Shown here piece after piece: positions 40,887 to 48,694 of a stretch of DNA of 64,000 bases. The notes beneath the pieces were generated by a model. That model had not been told where the DNA came from and ran no database searches. It saw nothing but the letters and a program-made list of their open reading frames with translations. The first letter of the stretch is position 1, and each line of letters opens with the position of its first letter. The stretch is from Haploplasma modicum ATCC 29102 (lineage in GTDB: Bacteria > Bacillota_I > Bacilli_A > Acholeplasmatales > Acholeplasmataceae), in NCBI RefSeq assembly GCF_000687835.1, contig NZ_JHYB01000003.1, positions 1 to 64,000 on the forward strand, in the 5' to 3' direction. A program made the translations under genes and the position numbers.

Positions 40887-41843
40887 TCATTTCAAGTATT
40901 TACTTTTAATTTCAATAATTGATTTAATCAAATATTGACCAAACAATTGAATGTTTTCTTCTTTAAAGCCTTTAATACCTTTTAAATCTTCTATTGTTAT
41001 TGGTAATAGTTTTACTAACTCATCTAACACATTATCATTATATGCAGAATATTCATTATTAAGTTTATTATATTTACTAATTTTCTTTCTTAGTAAAATT
41101 AGTTCATTTTTAATTTCTACATCTTTGTTAACTAAATATTTTTTCACAACTTCAATTATTTGTGTACCAAACAAATTTATTTTTTGATCACCTAATCCAG
41201 AAATATTTTTAAGTTCTTCCAAGTTTTCAGGTTTTTTCAATATAATTTCTTTGATTGTTGCATTATTATAAACAAAGTAAATTGGATAAATTTTATGTTC
41301 TTTTGAAATCATACTACGCAGTTTTTTTAAATCAATGAAAAATGGATCATTGTCATCTTTTTCCAAATTTTCACTAGTTGGTATAACTGGACTTTGCTTT
41401 TTAATAGATTTATTTTGCCTAAATTTAACATTTTCTCTCTTTTTAAGTTCTTCTAAAAAAATCTTAACACGATCTCGATTTATAATCTCAATTTTATTAT
41501 TCATTGCAGTAGTTTTTGCAGCAGACGTCAAGTCACTGGTGGTGACTATCCAAATCTCATTTAAACTATAGTGTTCTCTACCGTCCAACATGCTTCTAAC
41601 TTCATCAGCACCAACTTTTGATTTCCAACGCTTTGCCTGAATGCCTACATTTTTAGTACCTTGTTCAATTGGCATTTTTACAATTAAATCAATGCCATTA
41701 TCATTAGTATCATCTGTCATTCTTGTGGAGTATCCTAATTCCTGGAAAAACTTAAATAAAAATATTTCAAATTCTTTTCCGTTAAATTTGTCTAATTCTT
41801 CAATAGTTGATGGAAATTCATAAGAAAAGTCAAATACATTCAT
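40887..41843 (-). CDS. Mrr-type restriction endonuclease with two HRDC domains
   Basis: Residues 15-150 form an Mrr-like PD-(D/E)xK nuclease: FEIFLFKFFQELGYST, then catalytic Asp in NDNGIDLIV and Gln-x-Lys in IQAKRWK near 69-73. Residues about 173-243 are an HRDC domain (KIYPIYFVYNNATIKEI, then LKNISGLGDQKINLFG), and about 246-316 a second, more diverged copy ending LKGIKGFKEENIQLFGQ. HRDC usually binds DNA in RecQ and RNase D. The fusion suggests a type IV-like enzyme for modified or unusual DNA. It is the last gene of the defence cluster; 318 residues. Confidence 0.82.
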   Translation of the reverse strand: MNVFDFSYEFPSTIEELDKFNGKEFEIFLFKFFQELGYSTRMTDDTNDNGIDLIVKMPIEQGTKNVGIQAKRWKSKVGADEVRSMLDGREHYSLNEIWIVTTSDLTSAAKTTAMNNKIEIINRDRVKIFLEELKKRENVKFRQNKSIKKQSPVIPTSENLEKDDNDPFFIDLKKLRSMISKEHKIYPIYFVYNNATIKEIILKKPENLEELKNISGLGDQKINLFGTQIIEVVKKYLVNKDVEIKNELILLRKKISKYNKLNNEYSAYNDNVLDELVKLLPITIEDLKGIKGFKEENIQLFGQYLIKSIIEIKSKYLK

Positions 41844-42165
41844 ATAATTTTATCTCCTTACTCATAATTAAGATTATTTTGGAGCCAAGGTTTTCTTTTG
41901 GTGGATGAGCACTTTTTCTTCTCGTTTACCTTTATTGGTTAGTTTTTACCCTTTTTGAGTAAATAAGGGAATCTATTTATCTCTATGGGAAAACGACAGA
42001 AAGTTTGCGTAAGTAAGTAATTGGTTAATTTCTTACCAGTTTGAGTAATGGTGGGTAAATAGTGGAAACCGTGAGAAGTGAATTTTATGAACAAAATGGT
42101 TTTCAGGTTCAAATCCGATTGGGGCGTCCAATTATAAAAGTGGTAATTTTAACCTTTATAATCTG
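41844..42165. other. Intergenic region between the SMC ATPase and Mrr genes
   Basis: No ORF is convincing. It holds the tRNA 3' fragment at 42104-42130 and a weak hairpin ATTATAAAAGTGGT/AACCTTTATAAT at 42131-42163, which could end transcription of the ATPase gene. The 41870-42100 stretch is slightly less AT-rich, with no motif I recognise. Confidence 0.4.
42104..42130 (+). other. tRNA 3'-end fragment, candidate attachment-site remnant
   Basis: CAGGTTCAAATCCGATTGGG continues to GCGTCCA, which reads as T-loop (GGTTCAAATCC), 3' acceptor strand (TGGGGCG), discriminator T and CCA. No matching 5' half (CGCCCCA) is present nearby and the 5' side of the T stem is mispaired, so it is not a whole tRNA. 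It resembles the 3' end of the tRNA-Cys at 48620 but has a different acceptor stem. Islands often integrate at such ends. Confidence 0.5.
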
Positions 42166-43629
42166 TTAAATATCTAATAATAATTTACCTAAATGAACAT
42201 TGTTTGTGTTTTTTTTAAATAATTTAAGAATATCTTTATGTATAGTAGATATTATTATCTGGTTACTATTTAAATTGTTTTTTGCTAATAAAATTAGTTG
42301 TTCTATATTATTTATTGTCAATTCTGCTGCGCCCGGAGAATCAAAAATAAATGGTAAGTCTATACCAATTTTTTCTGAAGCGGCAATATTTAATGCTAAC
42401 CTAAATACAAAAACTATTTTATGTAAAATTGATCCAGAGTATTGTTTTAGATTACTAGTAAAAAGCAAGTTTTTTTCTTTGGCAATTAAATTTTCATATA
42501 CACCAACCTCTTTAGAAAAATTAATAATATTATTGGTTATTTTATTTATTACATCACTTCTATGGACTATAGTTTCATTTTTTTGTTTATTCAAATATTT
42601 TTTTTCCTTGCCTAAACTAGTTATTATTCTATCAATGCTAATAACATCAATATTTGAAGTTATTACACTATTAATTATTTCACTAGTACTTTCTTGAACA
42701 TTAAATAATTGATCATATTCTCTTAATTTTGAATTTATTTCAATTAATTCTTGATTTAATCTTTCTATATTTAGATATTCATTTTTGATTTGGTAGTCTA
42801 ATATATTTTGATTAATATCAAAATCAACTATGTCATCTGGCATTAACACAAACCTCTCACCACTTCTGTGCCTAATAAGTAAATTATAAGATGCTATATA
42901 CTCGACCATATTTGCATTACCTTTATATATGTTTTCTAATGTTTTAATCTGGTTAGATATTTTGTCAATTTTGATTTTCAATTCTGTTTTTATTGTTAAA
43001 AGTCTATTTCTTTCTTCGACACCTTGTTGTTCATCATGGCTTTTTTCATATTCAAAACTATCTTTTATCGAAACCATATTTCTTAATGCGCGATATTTTT
43101 TTATTTCATTATCAACATTTTTAAGTTTATTATTTATTTCTCCAACATTTATCCCAGATATTGCAGCCACAAAATCATTTATATCAAATCTATTGTTACC
43201 AATCGCTTTTCCCCTATTAAGTAATGTCCACCCTCTATCTTGATCTATGTACATGACCATTAATAAATTATTCAAAAAATCGAAATTATTAGACTCAAAA
43301 ACGATTGACTGCACGAGAAGTCTATTGTCGTCGCTATTCAGATTAAAATGTTTTAAAGTTCCATCACCAAAAGTAATTGTTAAATTTTCACCATCTCTTT
43401 CAAGTCTTAACAATCCTTGTGAATTTTCAATTTCCAAAATAGTTATATGTTCTGTCATATCGACTTTCTTAGTAGAGGGTATTTTATAACCAAATGAATG
43501 TAATAAGAATCTTATCAAAGTAGTTTTCCCTTTAGCATTTTCATCACTAGTTATGATTGTATATTTATCAAATGAAATTTGTATCGGTTCTAAAATACCC
43601 CTATGAATGATAAGTTTTTTAATCTTCAT
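42166..43629 (-). CDS. SMC/Rad50-like coiled-coil ATPase of a nuclease-ATPase pair
   Basis: The 487-residue protein starts with a RecF/SMC-type N-terminus (LIIHRGILEPIQISF) and a degenerate Walker A (SDENAKGKTT near 28-37, Asp in place of the first Gly). Coiled coil spans about 160-400. Near the C-terminus come an ABC-signature-like YSGS segment (about 398) and Walker B with LPFIFDSPG (425-433), where Ser follows Asp instead of Glu, then IISTIHKD. Its ATG overlaps the last 11 bases of the nuclease gene. By layout it resembles the ATPase of Lamassu-like or ABC-ATPase/nuclease conflict systems. I do not recognise a named system with certainty. Confidence 0.75.
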   Translation of the reverse strand: MKIKKLIIHRGILEPIQISFDKYTIITSDENAKGKTTLIRFLLHSFGYKIPSTKKVDMTEHITILEIENSQGLLRLERDGENLTITFGDGTLKHFNLNSDDNRLLVQSIVFESNNFDFLNNLLMVMYIDQDRGWTLLNRGKAIGNNRFDINDFVAAISGINVGEINNKLKNVDNEIKKYRALRNMVSIKDSFEYEKSHDEQQGVEERNRLLTIKTELKIKIDKISNQIKTLENIYKGNANMVEYIASYNLLIRHRSGERFVLMPDDIVDFDINQNILDYQIKNEYLNIERLNQELIEINSKLREYDQLFNVQESTSEIINSVITSNIDVISIDRIITSLGKEKKYLNKQKNETIVHRSDVINKITNNIINFSKEVGVYENLIAKEKNLLFTSNLKQYSGSILHKIVFVFRLALNIAASEKIGIDLPFIFDSPGAAELTINNIEQLILLAKNNLNSNQIIISTIHKDILKLFKKNTNNVHLGKLLLDI

Positions 43630-44656
43630 AATTAAACACCTCTTTTATCCTGTGAATAACATCACTTTTCATTGCATATGATATAACTAATGCTTTTTGA
43701 TAAGTAGTCGCTAATAAAGTAGCATCAATTTCATCACTAAACATTTTCACAACATTACTATCAATTGTTTTGCAATAGTAATTTGCAAATTCATTGTATA
43801 AAAGATTGGCATCTCTTGATAGAATTGGGTTTTCTCTACGAAACACAGTATAAGAACTTAACACTTTTGCATATTCATCAAAAGTAACCAAGTTCCTTAT
43901 TTTTTCATTGAAAAATTGCGACATTTTGCTAATATAAGAAATGTCAATGTCCATAGGGTCAATAATACTTATAACATCATCGAATCTTATAGAGTTTTTT
44001 AAGATATGACTAAAAATAGACCCAATAATATATTTGAAATCAATTAATTTTTTCTTATCTCTTGCATTATTAGCCAAAATCATATGCCATTCTGTAACTA
44101 ATTCGTTCGCATAAATATAACTAGCGTCTATTCTTTTTATATATTCATTAACAATTTCTTCAACATCTTTAAAAGGATTATAGTCATCCTCAAATCTTAG
44201 AAACCAAAACTCAAGCATTTTAAGCATTTTTTCATCGTTATGGCAGTATTTTCCAATCTTTCTCTTTAATTCAGTTGTTAGCCCCTCAAATTTTTTTATA
44301 CTACTTCTTGTCTCATTAAATTTTGGCTGCTGACCAAATGGATTGTGAAAATTAAAAATAGATATAAGCTTAGTAGCATTATCTTTGTTATCATACAGTG
44401 TGTTTAAGCTATCTTTTATGTCTGTTGATAAGTGACTTTCATTATAAAGTCTATCCGGTTCTAAAGATGATTTTGCTTGTGCGAAAACGTTTGTATTATC
44501 TTTTAATACAATTCTTATGTCATCAGTATCTTCAATTCCAACAAATTTTATATTCTTCATCTCTGTTATAAATATTAAAATTGCTGCAGCATATTGAAAT
44601 GAAATACCATTTGCAAGACTATTTGCAGATCTTTTATTCGTATTCTTTTCGTGCAT
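43619..44656 (-). CDS. Cap4/DUF4297-like dsDNA nuclease of a nuclease-ATPase pair
   Basis: In this 345-residue protein residues 15-65 fit a PD-(D/E)xK nuclease of the Cap4/DUF4297 type: GISFQYAAAILIF helix, Glu/Asp in GIEDTDDIRIV near 42-47, and Gln-x-Lys in FAQAKSSLEPD near 59-67. The rest, about 80-345, is helical with no motif I know and may be the partner-binding or sensing part. The gene overlaps the SMC-like ATPase by 11 bases, so the two are made together. In Lamassu systems a similar nuclease is paired with an SMC protein. The catalytic assignment is good; the system name is uncertain. Confidence 0.7.
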   Translation of the reverse strand: MHEKNTNKRSANSLANGISFQYAAAILIFITEMKNIKFVGIEDTDDIRIVLKDNTNVFAQAKSSLEPDRLYNESHLSTDIKDSLNTLYDNKDNATKLISIFNFHNPFGQQPKFNETRSSIKKFEGLTTELKRKIGKYCHNDEKMLKMLEFWFLRFEDDYNPFKDVEEIVNEYIKRIDASYIYANELVTEWHMILANNARDKKKLIDFKYIIGSIFSHILKNSIRFDDVISIIDPMDIDISYISKMSQFFNEKIRNLVTFDEYAKVLSSYTVFRRENPILSRDANLLYNEFANYYCKTIDSNVVKMFSDEIDATLLATTYQKALVISYAMKSDVIHRIKEVFNYED

Positions 44657-44750
44657 ATATATCCCCTCGTTTAATATTCAAAAGATTGTATTTTAAAATT
44701 ATACTGTTGCCGATATGTACTTATGTTAATTGTATCATGATATGAACAAA

Positions 44751-45746
44751 TCAATCTATAGTTTTTAAGTTTTTTTCCATATAATCAAAAAGCATTTTTG
44801 CTACAGCATAACTAACGTTAACTGTAACTGCGTTACCAAACTGTTTATAAGCTTGACTGTCAGAAACTACTTGATTCCAATTAGATGGAAATCCCTGTAG
44901 CTTTCTACATTCGTTTGGAGTTAATCTTCTTATTGGATTTTTATTTGGATCTTTAAATCGATTAAAGTTTTTTTCATCCGTAATATAGTTATCTTGACTT
45001 GCTCTGTGCATTTTTGCCATAGTAGCTGTTAAAGTTTTAGAAATAGGTTGATCAATTGTTGGTTTAACAACATAATTTTTTGTTCCCGTTCCCATAATTG
45101 TTGGTGTAATTTTCTTTGTTAAAAAGTATTTAATATCTACTTCTTTATCCAATAAATCTTGTGTTGTTACTTTCAACTTTTGTTTTGGAGGAAAAACTGG
45201 GTCTACAATATTAAAACTTTCGCCTAAAAATCCAATAATAAATGCTCTGTTTCTTCTTTGCGGTACACCATAATCTGCTGAGTTAAAAACATGATGATAA
45301 ACACTGTATCCTAATGATTCTAACTTATGAATCATCTTTGCAAAAGTTTTACCCTTATCATGATTAATAATATTCTTAACATTTTCTAAAACAACAACTT
45401 TAGTTTTATGTTTTTTAATTATTTCCTCAATCTCAAAAAACAGAGTTCCTCTTTCTTCATCTTGGAATCCTTGAAGATTTCCTAAAGTGCTAAAAGGCTG
45501 ACATGGGAATCCTGCAATTAATACATCGTGACTAGGTATATTATCTTTTTCATCCCTAATATCTCCTAGAACTATATTCTTGCCAACATTTTCCTTGTAA
45601 GTTTGTACAGCATACTTGTCGAAGTCATTTGCCCAAATAATATTGAAACCAGCGTAATGAAAACCTAAATCAAATCCACCTACTCCAGCAAACAAACTTA
45701 CTACATTATATTTAAATTTTTTAGGTTCAATTCTTTCCATTTTCAA
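44751..45746 (-). CDS. DNA (cytosine-5) methyltransferase A
   Basis: A complete 331-residue C5 methyltransferase. Motif I is SLFAGVGGFDLGF (17-29), motif IV GFPCQPFSTLG with catalytic Cys82, motif VI ENV at 121-123, motif VIII PQRRNRAFIIGF, motif IX RRLTPNECRKLQGFP and motif X QFGNAVTVNV. The target-recognition domain lies between VIII and IX. It overlaps the second methyltransferase gene by 20 bases. Two different C5 methyltransferases next to one endonuclease usually protect the two strands of an asymmetric site. Confidence 0.94.
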   Translation of the reverse strand: MKMERIEPKKFKYNVVSLFAGVGGFDLGFHYAGFNIIWANDFDKYAVQTYKENVGKNIVLGDIRDEKDNIPSHDVLIAGFPCQPFSTLGNLQGFQDEERGTLFFEIEEIIKKHKTKVVVLENVKNIINHDKGKTFAKMIHKLESLGYSVYHHVFNSADYGVPQRRNRAFIIGFLGESFNIVDPVFPPKQKLKVTTQDLLDKEVDIKYFLTKKITPTIMGTGTKNYVVKPTIDQPISKTLTATMAKMHRASQDNYITDEKNFNRFKDPNKNPIRRLTPNECRKLQGFPSNWNQVVSDSQAYKQFGNAVTVNVSYAVAKMLFDYMEKNLKTID

Positions 45747-46851
45747 ACACTCCAGTTTTCATAATACTTTCCATTATATTTATTAAAACATCAACAACAA
45801 TTGAATTACCACTTTGTTTATAAGACTGTGCTTTTGACACCGGTACTTTAAATGTGTCTGGAAAACCCATTAGTCTTAAAGACTCTCTAGGATCCAAAGC
45901 TCTTAATCGACCATCTGTTGTAACATAATTGTTAACACTAGCCCTATGGCTATTGCCTTGTGTAGACAATATTGCTCTAGCTATAGGTAAATCAGTTTTA
46001 GTTCCATTAGGATGGTAAAAGTTCTTTGTTCCCGGAGAAAGTACGTAAGCTAATAATTTCTCAGATAAAAATAACTTATCATCTGGTATTCCTTTTGTTC
46101 TTTTAATTTTAATATTTCCATTTACACTTTTAAAGTTCCCTATAGAACAATTATCAATTAAAAAATCTTGCATCGTAAATTCAAGTTCTTTTGTTGCAGG
46201 AAAATCAAATTTTTCTAAATATTTTTCATTTTTAAATCCAACAACAAATATTCTTCTTCTTCCTTGTGGAATACCATAATCTCTAGAATCTAAAACTTGC
46301 CACTTATAATGATAACCTAGTTCTTCAAAGACATTTTGAACAGTTGCCCATGTTCGTCCTTTATCGTGGTTTAAAAGTCCAAATACATTTTCATAAATAA
46401 ATACTTTTGGTTGAATTTCTTTCACTAATCTAACATAATCATAAAACAATGTTCCTCTAGTATCTTCGAATCCACCTCTAGATCCTACCATTGAAAAACT
46501 TTGACAAGGGCTTCCACCTACAAATAGATCAAGACTTTTATGAAAGTCTTCACCATCAAATAATTTTATATCGTAGAAAAAGTTATTATCCTTCACTTTG
46601 TAATTTTCTAAATAAGTTATTTCAACAAAGTTAGTTCTCCTAGTCTTTTTTTTATATAAACCATTTGCATAGTCTAATTTTTCTTTAATTGTATTCATTG
46701 ACTTAATTTTAGACAATTCCTCATCTTCATTTATGTCAATCACAATATTACCATTGTCAATTGCAAAAAGAATCTCGTGTTCGAGATTCATTCTTTCTAA
46801 AGCTTGTTCAATAGCTCCGATTCCGCTAAAAGCCGTTCCTAATCTAATCAT
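45727..46851 (-). CDS. DNA (cytosine-5) methyltransferase B
   Basis: The second C5 methyltransferase has 374 residues. Motif I is TAFSGIGAIEQAL, motif IV GGSPCQSFSMVGSRGGF with catalytic Cys116, motif VI ENVFGLLNHDKG, motif VIII QGRRRIFVVGF, motif IX RALDPRESLRLMGFP and motif X YKQSGNSIVVDV. An insertion of about 60 residues between motifs I and IV sets it apart from its partner. The RBS GGTGA precedes the ATG at 46851. It lies between the HNH endonuclease and methyltransferase A. Confidence 0.94.
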   Translation of the reverse strand: MIRLGTAFSGIGAIEQALERMNLEHEILFAIDNGNIVIDINEDEELSKIKSMNTIKEKLDYANGLYKKKTRRTNFVEITYLENYKVKDNNFFYDIKLFDGEDFHKSLDLFVGGSPCQSFSMVGSRGGFEDTRGTLFYDYVRLVKEIQPKVFIYENVFGLLNHDKGRTWATVQNVFEELGYHYKWQVLDSRDYGIPQGRRRIFVVGFKNEKYLEKFDFPATKELEFTMQDFLIDNCSIGNFKSVNGNIKIKRTKGIPDDKLFLSEKLLAYVLSPGTKNFYHPNGTKTDLPIARAILSTQGNSHRASVNNYVTTDGRLRALDPRESLRLMGFPDTFKVPVSKAQSYKQSGNSIVVDVLINIMESIMKTGVFENGKN

Positions 46852-46883
46852 TTCATCACCACTAGAATTGTATCATACTTTAC

Positions 46884-46913
46884 CCTGCGTAGCAACACTT
46901 TTAGACCTGCGTA
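46884..46913. repeat. Direct repeat CCTGCGTA before methyltransferase B
   Basis: CCTGCGTA occurs at 46884-46891 and again at 46906-46913, a 22-bp period (two helical turns), in the gap between the HNH stop and the methyltransferase start. It could be a control site or, if the enzymes recognise it, a methylation switch. Confidence 0.4.
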
Positions 46914-46920
46914 TTTGATT

Positions 46921-48159
46921 TTATTCAGTTTTTCTTTTAATTTCTCTCTCGAAAAATGTTTTTCTATGATTTTCTAAATATTTCATTCTTTTTTCATTAA
47001 GAACATCCTTAAAAATAGGTTGATGTAATAATAATTGATTAATTAACTTCCTATCGTTTACTAATAAAAAGGAATAAATTAGTTCTTTGTTTTCATCTAC
47101 AGATATCAGATATTTGTCAAATAATGCATCAGCATTAGCTAATAGTAATAATCCGTTATTTATATCATATTTTTCATCTTCATTAGATTCTGAATACGGA
47201 ATTATATGTGACGCTCTAAAAACAGTCCCAACTTTGTTAAAATCAGCTGATACCCATGTAAAAGGACAAAATACTTCGTCATCATTTGTTGTATAATTCA
47301 TCATCTCTTCTGCTAGCATTCTACGCCATTTATCTTGATGTATTCTTGTTTGCGATTCAATGGTTTCAAAAAGATTCTCTTCCCTTAATATTAAACTTTC
47401 AATTTTCTTATTTTCTTCAATTAAATATTGTTCCCAAACATAATTAGATTCACCTATGATTGTATAGAATGTAGGATTTTTACTTGGAGCAATATAAAGC
47501 TTGTTTTTTCCATCTTTAATTTTTTCTATCAATAAAAAGAGAATATCATTTTTGAACATGTTGTGTCTAAGTTTATGAAATTCAATATCGTTACTTGTTC
47601 CAATTCCATGTACTGCTTGTGATAAGTTTAATGGTGTTAGATCACTTGAATAATCTAAATAAATATCACAATTTTCCTTTTTCCATTCGTTAGGTCGTTC
47701 TATACCTTTATTTAATTTTCCAAAAACTTTATTGGTATATTTATGATTAAAATATTTCAATGAATCGTTAACAAGATATACGTCTGCAAAATTATTAATA
47801 CACTTTTCATATTCATCATTATTTTTTACATTTATTCTTGGATCATTCATTCCTAAGTCAATCCAAAAACTTCTCGGTAATCCTATATTGGATTGGTGAG
47901 CAGTCTCAAAGGGTCTGTTAGTATTTTTTTCAATTTCTTTCATTTCATCAACCGTTAAATAGTACAATAAATTTTTATGTATCATATTGGGTCTTGTAGC
48001 CTTACCAAAAGTTGGAAGATCAGAATGTGTTAAATACTTATAATATAGTATAAATTTAGAATCACTCTCATTTAAGTGTTTAGATAAATATATAGACTTA
48101 TCAGATAAAATATCATATATGTATTCTTTATTTCTAACTATGACCATTTTTCTTGCCAT
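46921..48159 (-). CDS. HNH restriction endonuclease
   Basis: The 412-residue protein has an unassigned N-terminal part (about 1-280) and a C-terminal HNH nuclease domain: FRASHIIPYSESNEDEKYD then INNGLLLLANADALFDKYL, the PF13391 pattern with catalytic His in ASHI and Asn in NGLLL. It is the first gene of the defence run and is followed by two C5 methyltransferases, so it is most likely the endonuclease of a type II restriction system; the N-terminal part would read the target. RBS AGGTGGG precedes the ATG at 48159. Confidence 0.85.
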   Translation of the reverse strand: MARKMVIVRNKEYIYDILSDKSIYLSKHLNESDSKFILYYKYLTHSDLPTFGKATRPNMIHKNLLYYLTVDEMKEIEKNTNRPFETAHQSNIGLPRSFWIDLGMNDPRINVKNNDEYEKCINNFADVYLVNDSLKYFNHKYTNKVFGKLNKGIERPNEWKKENCDIYLDYSSDLTPLNLSQAVHGIGTSNDIEFHKLRHNMFKNDILFLLIEKIKDGKNKLYIAPSKNPTFYTIIGESNYVWEQYLIEENKKIESLILREENLFETIESQTRIHQDKWRRMLAEEMMNYTTNDDEVFCPFTWVSADFNKVGTVFRASHIIPYSESNEDEKYDINNGLLLLANADALFDKYLISVDENKELIYSFLLVNDRKLINQLLLHQPIFKDVLNEKRMKYLENHRKTFFEREIKRKTE

Positions 48160-48619
48160 TATATCCCACCTTTATTCTTGTTTACCTTATAATAATTTTA
48201 ACATTTTTAATAAAAATTTAAAAGTTTAATCGTATTACTTATGCTAAAAATAGTTATTTTATAAAATATAAAACCAATGAAGAAAAACATTGAGACTACT
48301 AAACGGATTCGAACTCAAAAATAAATTAAAAAATATTATTAAAATAATTAATAACTTCATTATCTTTTATTAGCATTATAAAGCCATCGTTTTCAGTTCA
48401 AACCCTTGTTCTCATAGAGTTCAATCGCATATCCCAGAATATATTTAATTAGGTTCAACCACATACCCCGGACTTTTATATTTTATTATTTCATTATTTT
48501 TAATTTTAAAAACATGTTAAATTTAATAATAAAAAGCCCTAAAAATGCAAAAAATCACCCGTTTTAGGGTGATTTTGCTACTTTTTTGCTATTTTTAAGC
48601 TACTAATCAAATATTTTAT
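48160..48619. other. Intergenic region between the HNH gene and tRNA-Cys, with tRNA-like scraps
   Basis: No gene is seen. On the minus strand GAGTTCGAATCCG (near 48302-48314) looks like a tRNA T-arm, and AGTTCAATCGCATATCCC and GGTTCAACCACATACCCC at about 48420 and 48455 on the plus strand are two related copies with a period of about 35 bases. They may be decayed tRNA ends or chance. Poly-A/T fills the rest. Confidence 0.35.
48551..48576 (-). terminator. Terminator of tRNA-Cys
   Basis: AAAATCACCC pairs with GGGTGATTTT around a six-base loop, followed by a T-rich run on the minus strand. Confidence 0.8.
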
Positions 48620-48694
48620 TGGAGGCTCCGATCGGATTTGAACCGACGCGTAAAGGTTTTGCAGACCTCTGCCTTACCGCTTGGCTACGGAGCC
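48620..48694 (-). tRNA. tRNA-Cys (anticodon GCA)
   Basis: The minus strand forms a 75-nt cloverleaf: acceptor GGCTCCG/CGGAGCC with T discriminator and encoded CCA, T arm CGGTTCAAATCCG, and anticodon loop CTGCAAA giving GCA. It lies at the right edge of the defence island, oriented towards it. Confidence 0.95.

What the first reader, a model, noticed from the sequence alone, without database searches (positions are those of the whole stretch)
42166..44656. Two-gene Cap4-like nuclease plus SMC-like ATPase module: best candidate for a little-described defence system
The nuclease gene (PD-D/ExK, FAQAKS) overlaps by 11 bases an ATPase with coiled coil, odd Walker A (Asp for the first Gly) and Walker B FDSPG. 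Lamassu uses a Cap4-type nuclease and an SMC protein but usually with a third component, which is not seen here. The ATPase is shorter than typical SMC proteins, so this may be a compact variant or a separate system.
Basis: partly seen in the sequence, partly recalled or inferred. Interest (0 to 1): 0.8.

Follow-up and report, generated by a model that had tools for sequence, protein, structure and literature searches.

The report
Compact two-gene Lamassu-like defence module
Two overlapping genes encode a DNA-cutting enzyme and a small DNA-sensing motor-type ATPase; together they form a catalogued but untested anti-phage candidate (PDC-M46) that is a compact cousin of the known Lamassu defence system, so it is real and probably defensive, but not a new kind of system.

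Summary
Nuclease 43619-44656 (-) and ATPase 42166-43629 (-) overlap by 11 bases. They match PADLOC's candidate system PDC-M46 (PDC-M46A E 2e-30, PDC-M46B E 4e-106), so the finding meets one of its own refutation criteria (a named two-gene system). In 98 related loci from many bacterial phyla, plasmids and phages, the nuclease lies directly upstream in 92 by HMM and in one more by eye; the other five are split, cut off by a contig end or a Lamassu outgroup. There is no conserved third gene. The ATPase is a full-length relative of Lamassu LmuB (hhalign 99.5%; best solved match by sequence and fold is the LmuAB-DNA complex 9ux7). The nuclease's nearest fold is the LmuA tetramer on DNA (9hr5). The 'odd' Walker A and FDSP Walker B are ordinary for two-gene Lamassu. 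PDC-M46B does form its own clade (100/100) and replaces the zinc hook of most LmuBs (16 of 19 comparators) with a conserved beta-hairpin (0 of 77 have a hook). Most likely it works like LmuAB: the ATPase dimer senses foreign DNA and releases the nuclease. Defence itself was not tested.

The parts
43619..44656 (-). PDC-M46A / LmuA-like nuclease, 345 aa: N-terminal Cap4-type PD-(D/E)xK domain (residues ~7-105) plus a helical C-terminal part
   Evidence: PADLOC PDC-M46A E 2.2e-30, LmuA E 4.1e-11 over residues 6-291; AlphaFold pLDDT 88; Foldseek top 9hr5 LmuA tetramer, then 6vm5 Cap4, 9c1m HerA-DUF
44519..44533 (-). Active-site acidic motif E42-x3-D46
   Evidence: E42 and D46 invariant in 72/72 homologues
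44471..44479 (-). Active-site Q60-A61-K62 of the nuclease
   Evidence: Q60 and K62 invariant in 72/72
42166..43629 (-). PDC-M46B / LmuB-like SMC-Rad50-type ATPase, 487 aa
   Evidence: PADLOC PDC-M46B E 4.2e-106; 77/77 members also match LmuB models; PDB 9ux7 LmuB E 9e-18; hhalign to LmuB 99.5%, E 2.4e-23, near full length
43519..43548 (-). Walker A S28-DENAK-G34-K35-T-T
   Evidence: S28, N31, G34, K35 invariant 77/77; residue 29 variable
43210..43251 (-). Family motif YxDQ(E/D)(K/R)GWTLLNRG, residues 127-140 (Q-loop-like)
   Evidence: D129, Q130, G133, N138, G140 invariant 77/77; DQ also kept in 9ux7 LmuB
42820..42888 (-). Coiled-coil apex: predicted beta-hairpin, residues 248-270, in the place of the zinc hook
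   Evidence: AlphaFold helix 200-247, strands 251-253 and 259-261, helix 270-324; no CxxC at the apex in 77/77 against 16/19 LmuB comparators with one; more conserved than any 21-aa window of the coil
42430..42450 (-). ABC signature motif LKQYSGS (residues 394-400)
   Evidence: G399 invariant, S/T at 398 in 77/77
42322..42357 (-). Walker B LPFIFDSPGAAE (residues 425-436): Ser for the catalytic Glu, Glu five residues further on
   Evidence: D430, S431, E436 invariant 77/77; the same Ser-x4-Glu spacing in 9ux7, L015 and L109
43619..43629 (-). 11-base overlap of the two reading frames (translational coupling likely)
   Evidence: 4- to 29-base overlaps in most relatives

Best explanation
The pair is a member of PADLOC's candidate system PDC-M46, a compact, hook-less sister clade of two-gene (type I) Lamassu. 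It most likely works like LmuAB. Two copies of the ATPase dimerise through their heads when ATP is bound, and through the coiled-coil apex, here a beta-hairpin instead of a zinc hook. The dimer holds the Cap4-type nuclease inactive. When it binds an invader's DNA (ends, hairpins or replication intermediates), the nuclease is freed, self-assembles and cuts dsDNA, destroying the invader or the infected cell. The Walker B lacks the catalytic Glu, so ATP turnover is probably slow and the switch close to one-shot. SHOWN here: gene pairing, absence of a third gene, invariant active sites, homology of both proteins to Lamassu components, apex difference. INFERRED from solved Lamassu complexes: stoichiometry, sequestration, DNA trigger, oligomerisation, defence outcome.
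For: PADLOC PDC-M46A/B are the top matches for the window proteins and match 72/72 and 77/77 relatives. An LmuB model matches 77/77 ATPases. Best solved relative by sequence and by fold is 9ux7 'LmuAB-DNA complex'. The A4 nuclease profile weakly finds LmuA of the same entry (E 0.0045). Nuclease fold top hit is 9hr5 'LmuA nuclease tetramer bound to DNA duplex'. hhalign LmuB E 2.4e-23. Pairing 92/98 by HMM plus L060; no third gene. Neighbours include type I specificity subunits, YhcG/DUF1016, DpnII, AlwI, EcoRV and MvaI enzymes, and recombinases. The pair occurs on plasmids and in phages. In the window it lies in an island with a probable R-M system that a congener lacks.
Against: No functional test exists for this family in the papers searched (one search finds only a survey). 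The window nuclease is at E 0.06 for Pfam Cap4_nuclease, below the curated cut-off. A profile of the LmuA comparators finds no M46A member directly, and hhalign supports only the N-terminal ~180 residues (93.9%), so docking to the ATPase may differ from LmuAB. Most LmuB comparators have a zinc hook; this family does not.
Confidence: 0.8

Rival explanations
1. The pair mainly serves mobile elements against each other, or acts as an addiction module: the ATPase restrains a toxic nuclease and the module excludes competing plasmids or phages, as Wadjet and DdmABC do against plasmids.
For: Found on small Lactobacillaceae plasmids (7.6-45.7 kb) and in phage and prophage contigs, sometimes beside recombinases.
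Against: Not exclusive of the best explanation; also found in chromosomal islands with R-M genes. A pure toxin-antitoxin would not need an invariant ATP-binding site in the antitoxin. In L008 and L083 the nuclease is split while the ATPase remains, as expected of either.
Confidence: 0.1
2. It is a Rad50-Mre11-like DNA end-processing complex with a swapped nuclease, serving repair rather than defence.
For: Heads resemble Rad50 and SMC; Lamassu itself is described as evolved from DNA repair machinery (title of reference 59 in PMC12904381).
Against: Sporadic distribution: in 101 relatives searched with the protein the only strong match is the own genome, and 6 of 392 in the phylum sample match. 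Mobile context; a Cap4-type nuclease in place of Mre11; no catalytic Glu in Walker B.
Confidence: 0.04
3. It belongs to another nuclease-ATPase defence type, such as Septu (PtuAB), AbpAB, Hachiman or DUF4297-HerA, and not near Lamassu.
For: Stray matches: PtuA in 3/77, HamA in 1/72, DUF4297 in 5/72 members; 8zue AbpA E 0.0045 with the small profile; 9c1m HerA-DUF fold hit.
Against: Lamassu models match every ATPase far better; the ATPase is neither HerA nor a helicase.
Confidence: 0.04

Closest known systems
PDC-M46 (PADLOC-DB 2.0 candidate system, PDC-M46A + PDC-M46B)
   Same: Both proteins, gene order, lengths; every relative collected matches the models.
   Different: No difference found; the window ATPase is a deep branch whose nearest relative is another Acholeplasmatales protein at 38% identity.
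Lamassu type I, LmuAB (PDB 9ux7/9ux8; two-gene Lamassu)
   Same: Nuclease gene just upstream of an SMC-like ATPase, no LmuC; homologous heads with DQ motif; DS Walker B with Ser-x4-Glu; Cap4-type acidic...QxK nuclease.
   Different: ATPase about 50-90 aa shorter; no zinc hook, conserved apex hairpin instead; separate clade 100/100; nuclease C-terminal part hardly alignable.
Lamassu type II, LmuACB (9hqx, 9hqu, 9uxh, 9nyg) and DdmABC
   Same: Homologous ATPase and related nuclease folds.
   Different: Has the third component LmuC, for which no equivalent gene exists here; Vibrio LmuB has Glu to Gln in Walker B (PMC10586767), here Glu to Ser.
PDC-M22 (PADLOC candidate)
   Same: ATPase matches PDC-M22B (E 1.7e-11) and M22B joins M46B in the midpoint-rooted tree.
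   Different: M22B has a CxxC at the apex (L111, L115); the join is between long branches and may be false.

Membership tests
PDC-M46 | PDC-M46A and PDC-M46B models matched by neighbouring genes | tested here: met
   E 2.2e-30 and 4.2e-106, overlapping genes. HMM scan only; PADLOC's own cut-offs and system rules were not run.
Lamassu (two-gene, type I) | SMC/Rad50-like ATPase homologous to LmuB | tested here: met
Lamassu (two-gene, type I) | Effector LmuA encoded next to it | tested here: met
   Cap4-type nuclease upstream; LmuA model E 4.1e-11 for the window protein, but only 13/72 family members match that model; fold hit 9hr5
Lamassu (two-gene, type I) | Falls inside the LmuB clade | tested here: not met
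   Tree: PDC-M46B is one side of a 100/100 branch of length 1.85; hence filed as a sister clade, not as Lamassu proper. Unrooted and with long branches.
Lamassu (two-gene, type I) | Zinc hook at the coiled-coil apex (many but not all LmuB) | tested here: not met
   0/77 at the apex against 16/19 comparators
Lamassu (two-gene, type I) | 2:1 ATPase:nuclease complex, DNA-triggered release, phage or plasmid restriction | not testable with these tools
   Needs expression, structure and phage assays
Lamassu type II / DdmABC | Third gene LmuC | tested here: not met
   No gene between the two; no small neighbouring ORF shared by more than 3 of 93 loci

The most novel reading that the evidence does not exclude
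PDC-M46 is a distinct branch of SMC-like immunity in which the zinc hook has been replaced by a dimerising or ligand-sensing beta-hairpin and the coils are short, so that it senses a different DNA structure, or a non-DNA trigger, from Lamassu.
Probability: 0.25. Interest if true: 0.5.

Novelty: new member of a known kind. Interest (0 to 1): 0.35.

Why it matters
It gives a catalogued but uncharacterised candidate family a testable mechanism and a place next to Lamassu. It also offers a minimal natural variant (two genes, about 830 residues, no zinc hook) for asking what the hook and LmuC contribute to DNA sensing and nuclease release.

Tried and rejected
Single-sequence searches failed: the search for related loci with the window ATPase alone found nothing in genomes or viruses, and phmmer against PDB gave only chance hits; profiles were needed. 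NCBIfam has no model for either protein. Pfam alone is not decisive for the window proteins, although 13/72 relatives match Cap4_nuclease and 31/77 AAA_23. A hidden LmuC was sought and rejected. The 'odd Walker A' as a special feature was rejected. A direct-repeat att site for the island was sought: only an inverted copy of the tRNA-Cys 3' end was found and no integrase was recognised in the island, so the mode of insertion is open. Promoter-like matches do not exceed shuffles. The HNH neighbour has no plasmid relatives, and relatives of PDC-M46 do not carry the same R-M genes consistently, so the R-M genes are not counted as part of the system. The 2025 Lamassu structure paper could not be read.

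Full report
Observation. Both genes are present exactly as described: nuclease 43619-44656 (-), 345 aa, and ATPase 42166-43629 (-), 487 aa, overlapping by 11 bases. The window is contig 3 of a 1.22 Mb genome; the nearest ATPase relative is from an Acholeplasmatales bacterium (38% identity, L016).

Identity. An hmmscan of PADLOC-DB names the pair: PDC-M46A (E 2.2e-30) and PDC-M46B (E 4.2e-106), with weaker matches to LmuA (4.1e-11) and LmuB (9.9e-8). PDC systems are unpublished candidates; the one paper in the library that mentions PDC-M46 is a Bacillus cereus group survey, in which PDC-M46 and Lamassu calls fell on the same proteins in at least one case (PMC11811056).

Pairing. With a seven-sequence ATPase profile, 80 genome loci, 9 viral loci, 6 plasmid or phage records and a few related genomes were collected. 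Of 98 usable ATPase loci, 92 have a gene matching the nuclease profile directly upstream, mostly with a 4-base overlap (66 loci) or one of 7 to 29 bases. L060 also carries the nuclease with its QAK motif, L008 and L083 have it split, L013 and L074 lie at contig ends, and L015 is a Lamassu-like outgroup. No small neighbouring ORF family is shared by more than 3 of 93 loci. The module is therefore complete with two genes.

Anatomy. In 72 nucleases Q21, E42, D46, Q60, K62 and N102 are invariant: a Cap4-type PD-(D/E)xK site. In 77 ATPases S28, N31, G34, K35, D129, Q130, G133, N138, G140, G399, D430, S431, E436 and Q457 are invariant. Walker B is DS in all, with a Glu five residues after the Ser; 9ux7 LmuB and the LmuB comparators L015 and L109 have the same spacing. 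By established knowledge of ABC ATPases, loss of the Glu after the Walker B Asp slows hydrolysis; the review PMC10586767 makes that point for the Glu-to-Gln of Vibrio LmuB.

Structure. AlphaFold models are confident (pLDDT 89 and 88). The ATPase is a Rad50/SMC head with a short coiled coil capped by a beta-hairpin. Foldseek's first PDB hit is 9ux7, the LmuAB-DNA complex, followed among others by further Lamassu entries, SMC and Rad50; global TM-scores are low (0.45), probably because the coils bend differently, so E-values and the sequence profile (9ux7 E 9e-18) carry the weight. The nuclease's first hit is the Salmonella LmuA tetramer on DNA (9hr5, E 2.3e-4, low TM 0.43), then Cap4 (6vm5) and the HerA-DUF assembly (9c1m).

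Relation to Lamassu. Profile-profile comparison aligns the ATPase family with LmuB over nearly its whole length (99.5%, E 2.4e-23). The nuclease family aligns with comparator LmuAs over the first ~180 residues only (93.9%, E 1.6e-7). A maximum-likelihood tree puts all 40 PDC-M46B rows on one side of a 100/100 branch against 15 LmuB/M22B rows; the branch is long and the root unknown. The zinc hook (CxxC at the apex) is present in 16 of 19 comparators and absent from all 77 PDC-M46B apices, where a hairpin is conserved at 2.33 bits per column, above every 21-residue window of the coil (maximum 2.16). I therefore file the pair as PDC-M46, a compact sister clade of two-gene Lamassu: it works like Lamassu (likely) and is related to it (shown), but falls outside the LmuB clade in this tree.

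Setting. In the congener G001 the tRNA-Cys is followed directly by the mrr-HRDC gene; in the window 41848-48600 lies between them and holds the pair, two C5-cytosine methyltransferases and an HNH gene. Flanks of relatives hold R-M genes, YhcG-type nucleases, recombinases and integrases; these are counts without a background control. The tree shows the module in Bacteroidota, Fibrobacterota, Verrucomicrobiota, Spirochaetota and other phyla among Bacillota branches, which suggests horizontal transfer.

Mechanism and limits. The mechanism is inferred by homology to solved LmuAB and LmuACB complexes. Complex formation, DNA trigger, nuclease release and phage protection are untested, and the 2025 Lamassu structure paper (PMC12663957) was not readable here.

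Noticed in passing
41848-48600: 6.75 kb insertion between mrr-HRDC and the 3' end of tRNA-Cys; the congener G001 has the two side by side (L107 6273-7335). No integrase recognised inside.
   Followed up: partly
42106-42132: Inverted, imperfect copy (24/27) of the 3' end of tRNA-Cys (48618-48644) at the other edge of the island; its orientation is not that of a usual attL/attR pair.
   Followed up: partly
44751-48159: HNH endonuclease gene followed by two C5-cytosine methyltransferase genes: probably a type II R-M system with two methyltransferases; the HNH protein has no relative in the plasmid collection.
   Followed up: partly
40887-41843: Mrr-type restriction nuclease fused to HRDC domains, conserved in the congener next to tRNA-Cys, so probably older than the island.
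   Followed up: no
L005, L006, L007, L009 (plasmids); L010 (phage): PDC-M46 pairs are carried by small Lactobacillaceae plasmids (one of 7.6 kb) and by a Ruminococcus phage.
   Followed up: partly
L008:2761-3956, L083:4992-6001: Nuclease gene split while the ATPase gene is intact, which may be inactivation of a costly nuclease or sequencing error.
   Followed up: no
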